Shown here in pieces: positions 4 through 9,354 of a stretch of 64,000 nucleotides of DNA. Numbering within the stretch: position 1 is the stretch's first letter; every line of letters starts with the position of its first letter. Origin of the DNA: Thermoanaerobacter sp. (lineage in GTDB: Bacteria > Bacillota > Thermoanaerobacteria > Thermoanaerobacterales > Thermoanaerobacteraceae); assembly GCA_014896455.1 (NCBI GenBank), contig JADBKJ010000011.1, positions 1 through 64,000 on the forward strand, read 5' to 3'. A model generated the notes under the pieces. The model made no database searches, was not told the DNA's origin, and saw only the letters and a program-made list of their open reading frames with translations. A program made the position numbers and the translations under genes.

Positions 4-2142
4 TTATTCCAAACTTATTATCCTAATACGGAATTTATCTAAAAAATTAAATACCCCTTCGATATCCACATTATGAGCCCCATGCATTTTTATTTGCAAT
101 TTTGGGGGAAGGAAAGGGCTATACTTGGAGATAAAAAATTCCTGTTCCCTAGTATAGGGCAATAAACTTTCTAGAGACCACTTTCTTCTCTTAATATCCT
201 GTAAAATATAAATCAATTCATCATTAACAGGAATCTCCATGTGTCCGATTCCGTCTGTTTTCACCACGTCAACTCCATAATAGCGCAACATCCATATCAA
301 AGTTCTAAAAATATTTGTGCCAGTAAAGGTTTCAAATAGTAAGCCCTCTTTCGTTTTCCAGATAATCCTTTCGTCTGGCTTAACATTGAAATATCTATAA
401 GGTGTCCTTAATTCTTCTAAAACAGTCTGGGCCCTCTCATCAATAAAATCAAACTTACAGTCTGAACACAATATTTCGTGCATGCGTTCAGGAATACGGG
501 GGTGCAATGGTCCTAGTCCACCTGAATATCTAGGAGGCTTTCCATCCACCGCTTTTTTTACATATACTTTATTTTTATGAAAATCTATTTCTTCTATTTT
601 CCACAACCGCCCAGCAAGAATGATATTGTCTCCTTCGTTTAAAAGAGAAGTTTTTTCGATTTCTCCTATATTTTTAGTTCCATAAAAAACTTCATAAACC
701 TCTGGAGTCATGAAGACCGAGTAAAAATCTTTCTGTCTTAGCAATCGTTCCCCCTCTAGTCCTACAATCAATTCCTGTGTATCGGCCAATATTTCTAAAT
801 AATCCTTCTCAATCATGTGCTCAATTAATATACGGATATCTGATTCCGGCAGTTCATGAAAGGTAGCGTTTTCACTTATCAATGAAACAAGCTCCTCAAG
901 AGGGATACCGTTCAGCTGGTGACATATAGAAATAATTTGATGAAATAAAATATCATATGGGTACGGATAGCCTTTGCTGGGTTCAGTCCAACCTTGCAAC
1001 AAGAGATCCATCACTGCAATAGATTGCAGCAACCCATATTTGTCTGTGGTATACATCTGTAAATATTGACCTTCCCCTTGCTTTCTTCCTGACCTGCCCA
1101 ATCTCTGCTTTAAAGAGGAAACTGTAAATGTACTATCCACCTGTATTACCAGATCGATTTCCCCTATATCAATCCCTAGTTCTAAGGAGCTTGTAGCTAT
1201 AACGCTTCTAATTTCAGCGGACTCTGTCATCAGCTTCTCCACAAATTCCCGTTCGGCCTTAGCTATTGAAGAATGATGGGCATAATACCTTTCTCCCAGT
1301 CCCTCCCTTTGAGCTAAACGATTTAAAATTACTGTAGCCTCTTCTACTGCCGCCCGACTATTAAAAAAGATCAAAGAGGTATAGTTCCGGGTCAGTTCTA
1401 GAATATCTTCGTATAATTCCAGAGGATAATTTCCTGTTTTAGTTTTTTCAAAATGCATTAAACTGTAATAGATGTCCCTCTCAAATCCCTTTACTTCAAT
1501 GATTTCCACATTATCTGGATTGTTGCAATTAACCCACTTTTTAATGAGAGAAAAATTATCGATTGTTGCTGACAACCCGATGATCCGAGGGGGCTTTTTG
1601 CTGTATCGCTCAATACGAGATAAGAGAGATCGGAGCTGAACTCCTCTTTCTGTATCAATAAAAGCGTGGAGTTCGTCAATTACAATAAATTCGAGGTCAT
1701 GAAATAATTGCTTCAAAGAGCGGGTTCTGTTTATGAACAAGCTTTCAATGGATTCAGGAGTAATCTGTAATATGCCAGCAGGATTATCAATTAATTTTTT
1801 CTTACTGTGTTGGCCCACATCACCATGCCACCTATGCACAGGAATATTCATCTCTTCACATAATTTTTGAAGGCGCTCAAATTGATTATTAATCAAAGCC
1901 TTTAGAGGAGAAACGTAAAGAACCTTCAAAACGCTAGGAGCTGTCTTCTCGATTTTACTAATGATGGGCAAAAATGCAGCCTCAGTTTTTCCAGAAGCTG
2001 TACCTGACGACAACACCACATCTTTTTCTGTATCGATAATCACCGGGATTGCTTTTTCTTGGATAGGGGTAAAATGTTTCCATCCCATGTCCCATATTTT
2101 CTTTTGCACTTTATCTGATAGCTTATAAAATATTTGGCTCAT
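4..2142 (-). CDS. sngC: Superfamily II DEAD/DEAH-box helicase, Shango SngC-like (Lhr-like)
   Basis: Walker A-like SSGTASGKTEAAF, motif II VIDELHAF, SATIDN, motif VI QRLGRSGRKQG; third gene of an ATPase/TerB operon. Confidence 0.7.
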   Translation of the reverse strand: MSQIFYKLSDKVQKKIWDMGWKHFTPIQEKAIPVIIDTEKDVVLSSGTASGKTEAAFLPIISKIEKTAPSVLKVLYVSPLKALINNQFERLQKLCEEMNIPVHRWHGDVGQHSKKKLIDNPAGILQITPESIESLFINRTRSLKQLFHDLEFIVIDELHAFIDTERGVQLRSLLSRIERYSKKPPRIIGLSATIDNFSLIKKWVNCNNPDNVEIIEVKGFERDIYYSLMHFEKTKTGNYPLELYEDILELTRNYTSLIFFNSRAAVEEATVILNRLAQREGLGERYYAHHSSIAKAEREFVEKLMTESAEIRSVIATSSLELGIDIGEIDLVIQVDSTFTVSSLKQRLGRSGRKQGEGQYLQMYTTDKYGLLQSIAVMDLLLQGWTEPSKGYPYPYDILFHQIISICHQLNGIPLEELVSLISENATFHELPESDIRILIEHMIEKDYLEILADTQELIVGLEGERLLRQKDFYSVFMTPEVYEVFYGTKNIGEIEKTSLLNEGDNIILAGRLWKIEEIDFHKNKVYVKKAVDGKPPRYSGGLGPLHPRIPERMHEILCSDCKFDFIDERAQTVLEELRTPYRYFNVKPDERIIWKTKEGLLFETFTGTNIFRTLIWMLRYYGVDVVKTDGIGHMEIPVNDELIYILQDIKRRKWSLESLLPYTREQEFFISKYSPFLPPKLQIKMHGAHNVDIEGVFNFLDKFRIRIISLE

Positions 2143-2160
2143 ATTTATTTGCCTCCCAGG

Positions 2161-3492
2161 TTATGAAAGCTGGGTTCTTTTAAAACGTTTATGGATGTCG
2201 ATGACTTTTTCCGAGAAGTTGTTTTCTCTAGTCTCTTCTCCTATATATAATTCTTCAAAATTCAGAGCAGGATGTTCCATCTTAATATTCAAAAAGCTGA
2301 TAAACTGTCTGATCACATCTCCTAAAATAATGTGCTTTTCAGCACCTGGTCGTTTGTATGTCCACAGTAGATACTTTCGAATTTCTTCGTCCGTCACATT
2401 TATTTCATAACCATAATGGGCTGCGTGGATATCCCGTATATTCATCAATAGAATCAAGGTTTCTTCAGGTGTAAGGGGAGTTAATTTCATTACTGCCTGC
2501 CTTAAATCTTGATATTCTTCCTTTTCCACCGCTGGCTTCAAACGTCGCTTCAATGCCTGGTAGCTGTAAAGCCCACGGCGCTCATCCTCTAAAAACTCAG
2601 GGGTACCGCTAAACGTTATATACAAACCCTCAACTGAACCTTGCAAAATGTCATTGTAGATCATCAGGATATAGTCATAATTTTTTTCTCTGGCTTCCCT
2701 ATGAGTAATCTTATATAGATTGACTGCTTCATCTAAATTGATAATCAAGCCTGAATACCCTGCTTGCCTTACAAATTTACACAGCACTTTTAAGTAACCA
2801 TAATAATTGCTATCATTAATGATCTCTCTAATTCCTAAGTCCCGCATTGCATCGGTTTTGGTCAAATATTCTCCTCTGAGCCACCTCAAAGCTTGACGCT
2901 GTTTTTCCTTATCTTGCTTTACAAAACTTTTATAGTAAATACTTAGAACTTTTGCAAAATCGTAACCACCCGTTAACTCATCTAAATGAGAAACAGCTTT
3001 AACAATTTCTTTCTCTACTGCTTGAACAAATACACTCTCCTCCAAAACAGCTCTATCTTCATAATCTAGGTCTTCCATTACTTTCTTTTGCAAACCCATT
3101 ATCCACTGATCTAAAATAATGGGCAGGGTGTTCCCTTGGGGTGCGGATTTGGTTGATAGATTTTTTATCAATTCATTGTACAAGGCCAGAGCTTGATTAT
3201 CGCTTCCATACAATCTTCTATGGGGAGTAAAATCCGCATTGGTAACTACAAATCCTTCTTCTAGACCCACTTGCCTAACAAAATTTTGCATAAAACTTTT
3301 CCCAGTTCCATAGGCGCCGACAAAAAACTTGATCATAGAGTTTCCATTTTCTTTTATGTCTCTTAACTCTTCTCTTATTTGTTTCATTTCCGCTTCCCGG
3401 CCCACCATTATATACTGGAGACCTCTTTTAGGAACCACCCCGCCTGCCAATGCACTTAAAATATCTGCTGAATCTCTCCTTTTAATTTTCAT
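2161..3492 (-). CDS. sngB: P-loop ATPase of the BREX/DUF2791-like type, Shango SngB-like
   Basis: Walker A FFVGAYGTGKSFMQNF and LIINLDEAVNLYK; sits between a TerB protein and a helicase. Confidence 0.7.
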   Translation of the reverse strand: MKIKRRDSADILSALAGGVVPKRGLQYIMVGREAEMKQIREELRDIKENGNSMIKFFVGAYGTGKSFMQNFVRQVGLEEGFVVTNADFTPHRRLYGSDNQALALYNELIKNLSTKSAPQGNTLPIILDQWIMGLQKKVMEDLDYEDRAVLEESVFVQAVEKEIVKAVSHLDELTGGYDFAKVLSIYYKSFVKQDKEKQRQALRWLRGEYLTKTDAMRDLGIREIINDSNYYGYLKVLCKFVRQAGYSGLIINLDEAVNLYKITHREAREKNYDYILMIYNDILQGSVEGLYITFSGTPEFLEDERRGLYSYQALKRRLKPAVEKEEYQDLRQAVMKLTPLTPEETLILLMNIRDIHAAHYGYEINVTDEEIRKYLLWTYKRPGAEKHIILGDVIRQFISFLNIKMEHPALNFEELYIGEETRENNFSEKVIDIHKRFKRTQLS

Positions 3493-5326
3493 GCCGATTA
3501 CTCCTCTCCACTTCTTCCCATACAGTTACCAGCTCTTCGTTTATCACATACTCTTCTCCTATGAGCTCAATAAAGACATCTTCTAAATATTCCTCCGCTT
3601 TAGCATTTATCTGCTCGACAAAAATCGTTACAGGAACACCTTGATCTCTCAACTGTTCCTCTGCTTCATTTATGCTTTTCTTTCTATTGGAAAATGTGCT
3701 GATAAATTTAAATTCCTCTTCTGTTAAGGAAGAAATAAATCCTTCCACATCAACTTCTTCGTCAGACAAGCGGATTCGAGACCTATTTTCGGGAATGTCT
3801 ATTTCAGGCAATTCCAGTTCAGGTTCAGTTTCCTCGCCGTCTATCCCTGTGGTTTGGACTGGTCTTGGAGGTATAATATGTTTCGGCCCTTCCTTTTCCT
3901 TCGATGCTACTTGAGAAAAACGATTCTTTATTTTTTTATCTGGAGAAAAACGGCTTTTTAGTCCTACATCCTCTGTTAGATCTAATCTCTTTATTTCCTC
4001 TAATAAAGCTTCTTTAAACCCAGGAGGCAACAATTCTTCGTTTACTTGAAGCTGTCTGGTAATTCCAGCGAGCAATCGAGCAACATTCTCTGAAAGCCGG
4101 AATAAAGCTGTTACTTCATTGTAAAAATAATCTGTAGGCACATATTGTAAGTACTTTATAATACGGCTTGGAACATTTCGCCCTATTACTGCACTACTAA
4201 AAAAGTGGTAGGTCTCTATTTTTTCTTCTGGTCTAAACCAGGCTTTCTCCAGATCTAATCCCTCTTCTATGTTTATCCTTTGAAATAATTTTAAAGCCTG
4301 TTCAAAAACAGCGTATACTCTTTGGGCATTTGTCTTAAAAAAGGTAGTTTCTGAATATCCATATAGAACCTTTCGCCATTCTTCCATAGGTATTTTGCTA
4401 ATATCTTCTTGATATTCTTTGAAAATCTGATAAAAATTGAGCCCAGAATACGGTTCTGCCCCTAATCCCCATTTATAAGCCAATTCAATTTCATTCAGTT
4501 CTACCAACATATCCCTTATCCAGGGCACAATATACCTGTCCAGATCAGGAAGTCTATCCTTGTACGCCTCCCGTAAGCGGACCATCGTACTAACGTTGAA
4601 CGCAGCACTTTGATTGAATGTATAGTTCAAGAGCTCATAAACAAACAAAATAACGTAGCTCAAATCTGTGTCCAAATAATTGCCGTTTAGTGCCTGATAC
4701 CTCCAGTAGAAATACCACCTCTTCTGCCTTTCGTCCAAATCTCTAAAAGTAGTCCAATACACCCTCAACGGCACAAAATCCGCCTTGTTGAGTTTCATAT
4801 CAGCGTATTTAATTGAATCCTTCATAAACTCCGTTTCACGAGTGGAAAAGGTAATTTCTATAGCAGGCGAGCTCGACTTTTTGGCTTTGACAGAATTTTT
4901 TAGTTCCTCAATTTCTTTTCTTATGTAGAGAGGAGTTTCAAGATGAGCATATTCTGGCAGTATGATATCTTCTTCCTTGTAAAATTTCTCTTTTCCTTTT
5001 TGAAGTAAAACTTTTTCTGGAGAAGGTTCAAGTTTTTTGACTTGAGTAACTTCCTTCGTAAAAGGAAGCTGAGTTGGTGTTTCGGGAAGCCTCTTTGAAA
5101 CCTTTTCTTCCCTTTCTGAATACTCCTTCTGCCATTTCTTAATAAAAAACATATCTATCCAACCCAATACCATAGTCAAAGGGAGCAATTTGCCTGCGGA
5201 AAATATGACAATCAAGAGATATATCACGGTCTTTAGATATTTTTGATAATAAAAAAGATGTGCTCCAAAACCCCCCAAGAAAAATGCCAATAAATAACCT
5301 ACTGTTGGAGACTTGCCTTTTTTCAT
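3482..5326 (-). CDS. sngA: TM2-domain + TerB_N/TerB_C protein, Shango SngA-like
   Basis: N-terminal TM2-like GYLLAFFLGGFGAHLFYYQKY; TerB_N-like RVYWTTFRDLDERQKRWYFYWRYQ; acidic C-terminal TerB_C-like region; overlaps the ATPase gene by 11 bp. Confidence 0.65.
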   Translation of the reverse strand: MKKGKSPTVGYLLAFFLGGFGAHLFYYQKYLKTVIYLLIVIFSAGKLLPLTMVLGWIDMFFIKKWQKEYSEREEKVSKRLPETPTQLPFTKEVTQVKKLEPSPEKVLLQKGKEKFYKEEDIILPEYAHLETPLYIRKEIEELKNSVKAKKSSSPAIEITFSTRETEFMKDSIKYADMKLNKADFVPLRVYWTTFRDLDERQKRWYFYWRYQALNGNYLDTDLSYVILFVYELLNYTFNQSAAFNVSTMVRLREAYKDRLPDLDRYIVPWIRDMLVELNEIELAYKWGLGAEPYSGLNFYQIFKEYQEDISKIPMEEWRKVLYGYSETTFFKTNAQRVYAVFEQALKLFQRINIEEGLDLEKAWFRPEEKIETYHFFSSAVIGRNVPSRIIKYLQYVPTDYFYNEVTALFRLSENVARLLAGITRQLQVNEELLPPGFKEALLEEIKRLDLTEDVGLKSRFSPDKKIKNRFSQVASKEKEGPKHIIPPRPVQTTGIDGEETEPELELPEIDIPENRSRIRLSDEEVDVEGFISSLTEEEFKFISTFSNRKKSINEAEEQLRDQGVPVTIFVEQINAKAEEYLEDVFIELIGEEYVINEELVTVWEEVERSNRHEN

Positions 5327-5451
5327 TTAATGTCCCTCCCGAAATTTTTCAGGTAATATTCATAGCCTTATTTGCCGTTACCTTTAAATATGTCAATAGC
5401 TGAATAAAATCAACCTATTTTAACGGTTTTAAATTGAGCCACCCTGCGTAA

Positions 5452-5946
5452 TTAACCCCTCCATGCACTTATTACCAACTGAAAGAAGAAATTAATCGAT
5501 GGGAAAAAATTAGCTATATCTGATTCTACTACAAATTCATTTTCATTCTCTTCTGATACAATAAATTTAGTTGTTAGAGTTTGGTGACGTAGCCATTTAT
5601 CAAACCAAGTTTCATATTCACCTATAGGAGTCATCTTAACGTTTTTACGGCTAAAATTAACATAATCCGGAAAATCACTTAGTAGTTCCTCTTCAAGGGA
5701 TTCGGAGATAGAATTAAAAATTAATTGATCTTCAATTTCTAAAAATGCTAGTGGTCGTGTCATACCATCACGCTTTGCAGCGCGAATTATAGTTGCAAAA
5801 GTAGGTGTATACCTATCATGTTTAATTCTATATATTAGATAACCTAAATTACCATCAAGATTTGCTTCATATGCGAGATGATCAATTGGGTCTCTTATTA
5901 GTTCTTCTGACAAATTTGTTTTAATATTTTTCCATACTTTTTTCAA
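5452..5946 (-). pseudogene. Truncated reverse transcriptase (UG/Abi defence-type), 5' fragment
   Basis: RT-like N-terminus (RYTPTFATIIRAAKRDGMTRPLAFLEIEDQLIFNSI) through motif A (ESDIANFFPSI), then loss of frame; no palm YADD motif nearby. Confidence 0.65.
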
Positions 5947-6126
5947 ATAATCTTTATTAATAACCTTTTGAAAGGTAATTTTAGTCTCTTGGACTATTTT
6001 ATCCCTCTTTTCGAGAGCTCTCTATGCTTAATGAAATTCTTCTTTTTTTTAAATTGCTTTATTTATCAATTCGATTAAAGTCTTTTTTATTTATGTGTTT
6101 AAAATCCCTTCATCTAAATCTAGTAA

Positions 6127-6633
6127 CTAATCTTTAGTTATAGTTTCTAAAAAATCGAACGACCTTTTAATTTCCTCATCAGTGTAATATTTATCCGATT
6201 TAACTATTTTTATTTTTCTAATGATATCTTCTTTTACATATTTTTTCTCTTCTTTAAAATACATAATTGTAGCAACTAATTCCAAGAATCTAGAATTCTC
6301 TCTATTTAATCTATATATCACTTCTTTGTAGTTTTCTAGATCACCTTTTACACCAATGTCATCAATATTTAATTCATAAGTGTAAGTGGGGAAATAATTA
6401 TCATGCTCCTTAACATCTTCTTTTATCACATTAATCGATTTAAGCTCTTCAAGTTCTATTGTCAAAACATCCGAATATGGACCATAGTAATGGAAATAAA
6501 AATCTTCTTTAAAATCCGCTCCTAAATTTTTCAAAATATAAACCATCTTCTGTAATTTTTTTCGTCCTTCAATCTTTCCTGCAATTCGTAAAAGTTCAAT
6601 AATATTTGCATAATTTTCTAGAAAACTACTCAT
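6127..6633 (-). CDS. YwgA-like protein (possible DUF4065/Panacea-like fold)
   Basis: GRKKLQKMVYILKNLG...FHYYGPYSDVL; 4-bp overlap with the upstream HD gene. Confidence 0.6.
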   Translation of the reverse strand: MSSFLENYANIIELLRIAGKIEGRKKLQKMVYILKNLGADFKEDFYFHYYGPYSDVLTIELEELKSINVIKEDVKEHDNYFPTYTYELNIDDIGVKGDLENYKEVIYRLNRENSRFLELVATIMYFKEEKKYVKEDIIRKIKIVKSDKYYTDEEIKRSFDFLETITKD

Positions 6634-7967
6634 TGACCTTCCTCCCCCTCCTTAATAATTTTAATAAGCTCATCAGTTATATCTTCTCCTTCATAATTAG
6701 CTCTCGTAAAATATAGGCAATATCTATACTTTTTAATACCCGCTAAACTTTTTATTGAATCTGAAAATCTTGTAATTGAGTTATATTTCCCCTCTTTATG
6801 TATTAAAATCACCGGTTTTTCTCCTTCTTCTCCTTCTACGTAATAGTCATATGTAACATTACTAGGCCTATCTATTCCAAAATAGTACTCTACATTTTCT
6901 TCCTCAAATCCATATTGTATCAATTTCTCTTTTAGTTTATTTTCTATTTTTCCTATATGATGAATATTGTCTTCTTTGAGTTCATACGCTTTATATAGAT
7001 CTCTTCTTAAATATCTATTACATAGGTCTCGTAGCACTTTGTCTTCCGAATCACGCCATAATGAAATTGCATACAAAATTATATTGTCATTTAACTTTAT
7101 ATAATCTTTTATGTCCATTTCATTTCCTTTTCTAAATACAGGAATTAAAGTGTCTATTCCTTTATCCAATCTATTTTGCTCATATAAATATTTTGCTCTC
7201 TTTAGAATATTTTCTAATAATAGTTCGTACCCTCTTGTCGTTTTGTGGTAGTACACTTGCCAGTACATGTAATATCTTGCGTGAATATATTGCTCAACTG
7301 CGTATAATCCTTTATAATCTATTGCTATAGATTCTCCATGAATCTGCATCGATTTGAAAATCATGTCAGGATCAAATAATCCATATTTTACACCTACGTA
7401 ATAACTATCTCTTAACAAATAATCCATCCTATCCACGTCTAACTGACTTGATAGCAAATAAACAATATATTTACGTTCATATTCCTTGCTAATAACACTT
7501 GCAATTTTTTGTGGCAAACTTTTATCTTTATCCTGCAAAACTTGATTTATTTCTGTATCACCAAGAATGATATTAATTGTCCATTTTTCATGATCTGAAC
7601 CAATTACCTTTTCAAAAATATGAGAAAAAGGACCATGTCCTATATCATGCAATAGAGCTGCCGTTAAAGCAGTCATTTCGGTTTCTTCATCTATACTAAC
7701 TCCAATACTTTTCAATTGGGATAAAGCTTTTTCCATTAAATACATAGTGCCTATTGAATGAGAAAACCTGTTGTGATTCGCCCCGTAATATGTAATTTCA
7801 GAAGTACCAAGTTGTTTAATCTGCCGTAATCTTTGAAACTCTTCAGTATCTATTAATTCTAGAATATAATCTCTCGTTATTACGATAAAATTATGAACTG
7901 GGTCTCTAAAATATTTTGGCTTCATAATAACCTTATTTTTCACCCCTAAGAATTTCTTATTAAACAA
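6630..7967 (-). CDS. HD-superfamily phosphohydrolase (YwfO/dNTPase-like)
   Basis: NHNRFSHSIGT ... AALLHDIGHGPFSHIFE HD motif. Confidence 0.85.
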   Translation of the reverse strand: MFNKKFLGVKNKVIMKPKYFRDPVHNFIVITRDYILELIDTEEFQRLRQIKQLGTSEITYYGANHNRFSHSIGTMYLMEKALSQLKSIGVSIDEETEMTALTAALLHDIGHGPFSHIFEKVIGSDHEKWTINIILGDTEINQVLQDKDKSLPQKIASVISKEYERKYIVYLLSSQLDVDRMDYLLRDSYYVGVKYGLFDPDMIFKSMQIHGESIAIDYKGLYAVEQYIHARYYMYWQVYYHKTTRGYELLLENILKRAKYLYEQNRLDKGIDTLIPVFRKGNEMDIKDYIKLNDNIILYAISLWRDSEDKVLRDLCNRYLRRDLYKAYELKEDNIHHIGKIENKLKEKLIQYGFEEENVEYYFGIDRPSNVTYDYYVEGEEGEKPVILIHKEGKYNSITRFSDSIKSLAGIKKYRYCLYFTRANYEGEDITDELIKIIKEGEEGQ

Positions 7968-8175
7968 GTAATCTTTCTGAAAACATTTTTTCTTGCTTTT
8001 ATCTTAATATCATTATATCCTATAACTTGTCACTTTCAAATAACAACTTTAACTCTTGTTGAAAACCTATACAACAAGCAGTTTCTTTATCTTTATTCAA
8101 AAATGCATAAGTATTTCTTTCTTCTAAATTACTTTTATTACTATAGTTGGTGTTTTTATCTTATTTTTTAATGTC

Positions 8176-8254
8176 TTGACAAAAAATTTTTTTGATATAC
8201 AATCACCTCTAGGGGGGATTAATAATGAAAGAATTTTTGTATAATTTGCCATAA
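8176..8254 (+). promoter_or_regulatory. Sigma-A type promoter followed by RBS and a 9-codon ORF (MKEFLYNLP)
   Basis: TTGACA-N16-TACAAT, then AGGGGGGATTAATAATG; next stop after 9 codons. Confidence 0.4.
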
Positions 8255-8427
8255 GAAGAGAGTGAACCATAAAATATGAGCGATAAAAAATTCCCCCTCT
8301 TTATTCACAACTTAAATACAACATAATCGTCGCCTGAAGTTTAATAATTTTATTTCTATCATCTTTTTATAAATTCTTATAAATATAAATATTACGGCAT
8401 TTTCACTTCTCTTTCTCCGCTGCCACC

Positions 8428-9354
8428 TCATCCTCTACATATCTCACCTTTATAATACTCAATTGTCTCTTTTAACCCCTCTTCCAAACTATACTCCGGT
8501 TTCCATCCAAACACATCTAATGCTTTTTTATTATCAAGATAACTATGCACTATATCTCCTTTTCGAGGTTCTGTATAAATAGGCTCTAAAGAGGTATTCA
8601 TGATTTTATTCATCATTTCAACAAGCTCATTTATACTTGTAGGTTTATTCGTGCTTATATTTACAACCTCATTATCTCCCCTCTCCAGTGCCAAAAGATT
8701 GGCTTTAGCCACATCTTTTACATAAACAAAATCACGTGTTTGCTTTCCATCTCCGAAAATAATAGGTCTTTCCCCTTTAAGCATCTTATCTATAAAAATA
8801 GATATTACTCCACCTTCTCCTTTTGGGTCCTGTCTTATCCCATATACATTTGCATAGCGCAAAATCGTATACTTTAAGCCATACAATTGCCTGTATACTT
8901 CAAAATAATGCTCTGGTGTGTGCTTTGATATGCCATAGTAAGATATGGGATTTATTTTATGTACTTCATCAATAGGAAGATACTCAGGATTTCCATACAC
9001 TGCTGCTGATGAAGCGTATATAACTTTTTTAACACCACTTTTTCTGCAGCACTTCAGTAAATTTACTGTTCCAAGTATATTTACTTTTGCATCAAATACA
9101 GGATTATCAATTGATTTCTGTACATCTATTTGAGCTGCTTGATGTATCACATAATCAGGTTTTTCTTTTTCAAATATTTCATATAAGTCATCATCTGTGA
9201 TGTCTTTTTTATAAAAAATGGCCTTTTTATTTATAAATTCTTCTTTTCCTGTTGAAAGATTATCCACTATTACGACTTCATGTCCATTTTCAATCAGCAA
9301 ATCTACTATGTTTGAACCTATAAAACCTGCACCGCCTGTGACTAAAACTTTCAT
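8428..9354 (-). CDS. NAD-dependent sugar epimerase/dehydratase (UDP-glucose 4-epimerase-like)
   Basis: MKVLVTGGAGFIGSNIVD; YGISKHTPEHY (YxxxK). Confidence 0.85.
   Translation of the reverse strand: MKVLVTGGAGFIGSNIVDLLIENGHEVVIVDNLSTGKEEFINKKAIFYKKDITDDDLYEIFEKEKPDYVIHQAAQIDVQKSIDNPVFDAKVNILGTVNLLKCCRKSGVKKVIYASSAAVYGNPEYLPIDEVHKINPISYYGISKHTPEHYFEVYRQLYGLKYTILRYANVYGIRQDPKGEGGVISIFIDKMLKGERPIIFGDGKQTRDFVYVKDVAKANLLALERGDNEVVNISTNKPTSINELVEMMNKIMNTSLEPIYTEPRKGDIVHSYLDNKKALDVFGWKPEYSLEEGLKETIEYYKGEICRG

What the first reader, a model, noticed from the sequence alone, without database searches (positions are those of the whole stretch)
4..5326. Shango-like sngABC operon whose TerB protein carries a TM2 membrane domain
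TerB_N/TerB_C protein, P-loop ATPase and SF2 helicase occur in order A-B-C with tight spacing, matching the published three-gene Shango anti-phage architecture. The N-terminal TM2-like segment would tether SngA to the membrane, which may be a variant arrangement.
Basis: partly seen in the sequence, partly recalled or inferred. Interest (0 to 1): 0.6.

Follow-up and report, generated by a model that had tools for sequence, protein, structure and literature searches.

The report
Membrane-anchored Shango phage-defence operon
A heat-loving bacterium of the Thermoanaerobacter group carries the known three-gene anti-phage system Shango, whose TerB protein is fused to a small membrane anchor; comparison with about 100 relatives shows that such anchors are common and varied in Shango, occurring even in E. 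coli, so the fusion is real but one of several versions.

Summary
On the minus strand at 5326-4 lie three tightly packed, intact genes that PADLOC models recognise as SngA, SngB and SngC (135, 512 and 716 bits), and SngA carries a genuine N-terminal Pfam TM2 domain (aa 4-45, 33.3 bits, cut-off 27.9).

The 'variant' reading is only partly right. TM2 is not universal (14 of 97 SngA proteins with a complete N-terminus) and is not limited to this lineage: it sits in three separated parts of the SngB+SngC tree (Bacillota, Bacteroidota/Ignavibacteriota, haloarchaea). A further 23 SngAs carry other N-terminal membrane segments, including E. coli and Klebsiella SngA; 60 are soluble. Charge patterns place the TerB part in the cytosol wherever they are clear. 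TM2 is conserved between genera (51-56% identity in six of seven comparisons) while the adjoining linker is not (16-33%).

Most likely mechanism: an ORC/Cdc6-like ATPase (SngB) and an Lhr/BrxHI-type helicase (SngC) act on invading DNA, and SngA tethers or positions them at the membrane. The anchor is a swappable accessory. New variant of a known kind; moderate interest.

The parts
3482..5326 (-). sngA: TM2 - disordered linker - TerB_N - middle region - linker - TerB_C, 614 aa
   Evidence: PADLOC SngA 134.9 bits; Pfam TM2/TerB_N/TerB_C; AlphaFold2 model mean pLDDT 77
5192..5317 (-). TM2 membrane domain (SngA aa 4-45)
   Evidence: PF05154 33.3 bits vs cut-off 27.9; modelled as a helical hairpin, helices 7-19, 30-42, 48-79
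4475..4858 (-). TerB_N domain (SngA aa 157-284)
   Evidence: PF13208 93.7 bits
3527..3805 (-). TerB_C domain (SngA aa 508-600); model shows a winged-helix-like fold, weak structural matches only
   Evidence: PF15615 36.2 bits; Foldseek hits to winged-helix DNA-binding domains, E 1.8 and worse, best probability 0.8
5334..5340 (-). Shine-Dalgarno-like GGGAGGG 7 nt before the sngA ATG
   Evidence: sequence
2161..3492 (-). sngB: BrxC/BrxD-family AAA+ ATPase, 443 aa
   Evidence: PADLOC SngB 511.8 bits; PF10923 472.8 bits; fold like Orc1/Cdc6
3292..3318 (-). SngB Walker A GAYGTGKSF (aa 59-67)
   Evidence: pattern present in 97 of 97 SngB
2725..2739 (-). SngB Walker B NLDEA (aa 252-256)
   Evidence: D254 and E255 invariant in two alignments
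4..2142 (-). sngC: Lhr/BrxHI-like SF2 DNA helicase, 712 aa
   Evidence: PADLOC SngC 715.9 bits; DEAD, Helicase_C, WH_Lhr; complete stop codon
1978..2010 (-). SngC helicase motif I SSGTASGKTEA (aa 45-55)
1666..1677 (-). SngC motif II DELH (aa 156-159)
1084..1107 (-). SngC motif VI QRLGRSGR (aa 346-353)

Best explanation
This is an intact Shango (sngABC) locus of a Thermoanaerobacter genome. Inferred mechanism: SngB, an ORC/Cdc6-like AAA+ ATPase of the BrxD family, assembles on DNA and loads or regulates SngC, an Lhr/BrxHI-type SF2 helicase that translocates on invading phage DNA. SngA, with cytosolic TerB_N and TerB_C domains, ties the pair to the cytoplasmic face of the membrane through its TM2 hairpin, where phage DNA enters, and may link activation to an envelope signal. 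The anchor is an exchangeable accessory: other Shango lineages use a single helix, a different hairpin, a signal-peptide/SH3/transmembrane arrangement, or none. Shown by computation: family assignment, intact motifs, TM2 and its conservation, repeated occurrence of anchors. Inferred: topology, complex formation, DNA target, defence role in this host.
For: Family models for all three genes; catalytic motifs intact; SngB model (pLDDT 84) matches Orc1/Cdc6 bound to DNA and TnsC-type AAA+ proteins; SngC is nearest to Lhr-type helicases in the PDB by sequence (that these top hits are Lhr proteins is own knowledge, WH_Lhr domain) and a published tree puts SngC with BrxHI, DruE and DpdJ (PMC12278908). 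N-terminal (first 70 aa) hydrophobic segments in 31 of 97 SngA against 0 of 97 SngB and 0 of 97 SngC. Single-helix anchors mostly have no K/R before the helix and 3-7 after it; TM2 hairpins have positive charge on both sides: both patterns leave the TerB part inside. TM2 51-56% identical between the window and L029-L031, L041, L055, L056 (30% for L057) while the next 57 residues are 16-33% identical. TM2-SngA proteins in three separated parts of the tree; one clade rejected, p-AU 5e-49. Shango restricts phages when cloned from P. aeruginosa PA14 (PMC10250203).
Against: 60 of 97 SngAs have no detectable membrane segment, so the membrane is not needed for the core activity everywhere. No interaction, localisation or phage data exist for this locus. 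PF05099 is not detected in this SngA. SngA's model has pTM 0.51 and no PDB match, so what TerB_N/TerB_C do is unknown. TM2 could sense or gate rather than anchor.
Confidence: 0.6

Rival explanations
1. SngA is a membrane effector: on activation by SngBC the TM hairpins oligomerise into a pore that depolarises the cell (abortive infection), as the CRISPR effector Cap1 does with an N-terminal two-helix hairpin and cytosolic sensor domains.
For: Same layout as Cap1: N-in two-helix hairpin, then cytosolic domains (PMC12642688). TM2 is conserved while its linker is not. SngA has no recognisable enzyme domain.
Against: 60 of 97 SngAs lack any membrane segment while keeping the same SngB/SngC; many anchors are single short helices or helices joined to a periplasmic SH3 domain, which does not suggest a conserved pore.
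Confidence: 0.13
2. The TM2 domain is an incidental fusion with little effect; this is plain Shango.
For: Most SngAs are soluble; the anchor lies outside the part covered by the PADLOC SngA model.
Against: TM2 is kept across genera at an identity similar to TerB_N in the more distant relatives, and membrane segments recur in unrelated forms across phyla.
Confidence: 0.17
3. The operon serves a DNA-repair or metal/stress response in this thermophile rather than phage defence.
For: TerB-type domains were first described in tellurite/stress loci (own knowledge); SngC resembles Lhr repair helicases.
Against: Patchy presence (3 of 10 genomes of the genus, 7 of 20 of the family), location in a variable block, far better match to Shango models than to any housekeeping family, and published anti-phage activity of homologues.
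Confidence: 0.08

Closest known systems
Shango (SngABC) of Escherichia coli / Pseudomonas aeruginosa PA14
   Same: Same three genes, same order and tight spacing; SngA recognised by the same PADLOC model; E. coli SngA is also predicted to be membrane-anchored.
   Different: Anchor is a TM2 hairpin instead of one helix; PF05099 TerB is detected in E. coli SngA but not here; SngB 37% identical to the E. coli plasmid type. PA14 SngA itself was not available to check.
BREX BrxD-BrxHI pair
   Same: SngB belongs to Pfam BrxC_BrxD and matches the PADLOC BrxD model; SngC matches BrxHI.
   Different: Scores much lower than for Shango (BrxD 180 vs SngB 512 bits; BrxHI 456 vs SngC 716) and no other BREX protein adjoins the operon in the window; the NCBIfam BrxD cut-off is not reached (181 vs 350 bits).
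Cap1, type III CRISPR membrane effector (PMC12642688)
   Same: N-terminal two-helix hairpin with cytosolic domains behind it.
   Different: No CARF-type domain was found in SngA by Pfam; resemblance is of layout only.

Membership tests
Shango | SngA-family protein with TerB_N and TerB_C | tested here: met
   PADLOC SngA E=1.7e-39 over 90% of the profile; PF13208 and PF15615 above cut-off
Shango | SngB ATPase with intact Walker motifs | tested here: met
   511.8 bits; motifs
Shango | SngC DEAD/DEAH helicase | tested here: met
   715.9 bits; motifs I, II, VI
Shango | Three contiguous genes in the order A-B-C | tested here: met
   same in 21 of 22 Bacillota loci with TerB_N that were read out, the other cut by a contig end
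Shango | Central PF05099 TerB domain (listed for Shango in PMC10952713, but not a separate requirement of the three PADLOC protein models) | tested here: not met
   No PF05099 match; also absent by Pfam from other PADLOC-recognised SngAs L029, L037, L041, L064, L089. Treated as non-defining: lineage divergence
Shango | Anti-phage activity | not testable with these tools
   Reported for P. aeruginosa PA14 and E. coli Shango (PMC10250203), not for this locus
TM2 domain (PF05154) | Score above gathering cut-off and two-helix hairpin | tested here: met
   33.3 vs 27.9 bits; hairpin in the model at moderate confidence
BREX | BrxD above the curated cut-off with other BREX genes | tested here: not met
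   NF033438 181 vs 350 bits; no other BREX model hit among the six ORFs of 1-8 kb scanned

The most novel reading that the evidence does not exclude
The SngA N-terminus is an exchangeable envelope module: non-homologous anchors (single helix, TM2, other hairpins, signal peptide-SH3-helix with or without TM2) have been swapped repeatedly in front of the same cytosolic TerB protein, so that anchored Shango surveys DNA entry or envelope damage at the membrane, in some lineages through a periplasmic SH3 sensor.
Probability: 0.35. Interest if true: 0.6.

Novelty: new variant of a known kind. Interest (0 to 1): 0.4.

Why it matters
Shango's mechanism is, as far as the papers read here show, unknown. 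That over a third of the SngAs sampled, including those of E. coli, are predicted to sit at the membrane through unrelated anchors points to the envelope as the place of action in those lineages and gives a direct test (delete or swap the anchor). I found no statement of this in the papers searched, which exclude most subscription journals, including the first description of the system.

Tried and rejected
Extended operon: a metallophosphoesterase + SMC-like ATPase pair follows sngC in Thermoanaerobacter sp. A7A (L032) and in Natrinema (L147), but the proteins of the two loci do not match each other by BLAST, recur in no other locus, and were not found as relatives in the window's own genome beyond one weak partial hit; rejected as part of the system. 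Missed anchors upstream of 'soluble' SngA starts: in-frame upstream regions checked, only one weak case, L109. Phage carriage: no SngA match and no SngB match in phage records; two viral contigs only. Structural relatives of SngA: none significant in PDB or viral models. Promoter and terminator scans did not exceed shuffled expectation.

Full report
What is there. The minus strand of window 5326-4 holds three complete genes with an 11-bp overlap (sngA/sngB) and an 18-bp gap (sngB/sngC). PADLOC assigns them to SngA, SngB and SngC with E-values of 1.7e-39, 4e-154 and 2e-215. Pfam finds TM2 (aa 4-45), TerB_N and TerB_C in SngA, BrxC_BrxD in SngB, and DEAD, Helicase_C and WH_Lhr in SngC. A Shine-Dalgarno-like GGGAGGG stands 7 nt before the ATG that begins the TM2 reading. 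SngC ends at the very edge of contig C3 with its own TAA stop and is as long as in relatives. Walker A, Walker B, DELH and motif VI are intact.

Host and distribution. A relative in the same genus, G006, lies on a contig of the same length as one titled Thermoanaerobacter sp. A7A in the public record, so the host is a Thermoanaerobacter (inference). TerB_N occurs in 3 of 10 genomes of the genus, 7 of 20 of the family and 23 of 399 of the phylum. In 21 of the 22 phylum loci I read out, a SngB/SngC pair follows; the other is cut by a contig end. sngB-like DNA is in 480 of 5,426 E. coli genomes and in several hundred plasmids.

Locus dynamics. In A7A (L032) and G004 (L033) sngA abuts the sugar-epimerase gene that lies at 8428-9354 in the window; here about 3.06 kb (about 5391-8446) lies between them, holding a reverse-transcriptase remnant, a small YwgA-like gene and an HD-domain gene. 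Shango thus sits in a variable block beside a cell-surface sugar gene cluster.

Is TM2 unusual? I collected 97 Shango loci with SngB, SngC and a complete SngA and scored the SngA N-terminus by hydropathy and a TM2 profile, confirming TM2 with Pfam on representatives. Fourteen have TM2, 23 other membrane segments, 60 none. One of the 23 (L144, E. coli) was counted on a hydrophobic stretch that lies upstream of the annotated start and has no ATG, GTG or TTG start codon before it, so that case is doubtful. As a control, a hydrophobic 19-mer in the first 70 residues occurs in 31 of 97 SngA but in no SngB or SngC; the rest of the 37 are TM2 proteins just under the hydropathy threshold, SH3 proteins whose helix lies further in, or the doubtful L144. 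E. coli and Klebsiella SngA start with one helix followed by a run of lysines and arginines. Christiangramia and an Ignavibacteriales bacterium have an SH3_3 domain, a further helix and TM2; two haloarchaea have TM2, in one of them (L138) missed by the deposited start site.

Tree. On the SngB+SngC tree TM2 rows fall in three separated places (Bacillota; Christiangramia with Ignavibacteriales; haloarchaea), needing 5 changes of state, at least 4 forced by well-supported branches; holding them together is rejected. The count cannot tell gains from losses, so an old TM2 with many replacements is not excluded, but either way anchors have been exchanged repeatedly.

Constraint on TM2. Between the window and seven other Bacillota TM2-SngAs, TM2 is 51-56% identical in six (30% in the seventh, L057), the following linker 16-33%, and TerB_N 49-72%. 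Within the genus TM2 shows 5 synonymous to 2 nonsynonymous codon differences against each relative, while the linker shows 2 to 9 and 2 to 6. The domain is therefore being kept; the counts within the genus are small.

Topology. TM2 hairpins carry positive charge before the first and after the second helix; most single-helix anchors carry none before and several after. By the positive-inside rule both leave TerB_N and TerB_C in the cytosol. In the SH3 proteins the SH3 domain would be outside. These are inferences from charge, without a trained topology predictor.

Likely mechanism. The SngB model (pLDDT 84) matches Orc1/Cdc6 initiators, TnsC and RdrA: AAA+ proteins that form assemblies on nucleic acid. 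SngC resembles Lhr helicases and, in a published tree, groups with BrxHI, DruE and DpdJ (PMC12278908). SngB-SngC is thus the counterpart of the BREX BrxD-BrxHI pair. I infer that SngB loads or governs SngC on foreign DNA and that SngA fixes this machine at the membrane in anchored lineages. SngA's own biochemical role is open: its model has no PDB relative above noise; the C-terminal domain looks like a winged helix, with weak support.

Known versus new. Family, gene order and domains are published (PMC10250203, PMC10952713). A search of open-access papers found no mention of TM2 or membrane anchoring in SngA; this is weak negative evidence because the library lacks most subscription papers. 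I file the locus as Shango, of a Bacillota subtype with a TM2 anchor and no recognisable PF05099 domain.

Limits. The 97 loci are those nearest to the window in SngB plus a phylum sample and hand-picked plasmid and E. coli records, so proportions are descriptive. P. aeruginosa PA14 SngA, an experimentally studied one, could not be read. No functional data exist for this locus.

Noticed in passing
window 5452-5946 (-): N-terminal third of a UG13a-type defence reverse transcriptase (107 bits, profile 22-175 of 589), ending after 164 aa: a DRT remnant directly upstream of sngA.
   Followed up: partly
window 6127-7967 (-): YwgA-like 168-aa gene (name from own knowledge) plus HD-domain phosphohydrolase gene (PF01966 + HD_assoc_2); similar DNA (about 70% identity) lies near Shango in two other Thermoanaerobacteraceae (L031, L028).
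   Followed up: partly
window about 5391-8446: 3.06-kb block present here and absent from two congeners, in which sngA abuts the epimerase gene; defines one end of a variable defence site.
   Followed up: partly
L032:845-4212 (-) and L147:8751-11320 (+): Metallophosphoesterase + SMC/AAA-type ATPase pair directly downstream of sngC in a Thermoanaerobacter and, with proteins that do not match by BLAST, in a haloarchaeon.
   Followed up: partly
L144:2640-2850 (+): Rarer E. coli Shango type: a TM-helix-like stretch lies in frame upstream of the annotated sngA start but has no ATG/GTG/TTG start codon before it.
   Followed up: partly
L138:2503-2673 (+): Deposited start of Halocatena SngA leaves out an in-frame N-terminal TM2 domain of the longest ORF.
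   Followed up: yes
L034:6764-10456 (-) and L051:5096-9391 (+): Giant SngA proteins of 1230 and 1431 aa with long N-terminal extensions that have no Pfam match.
   Followed up: no
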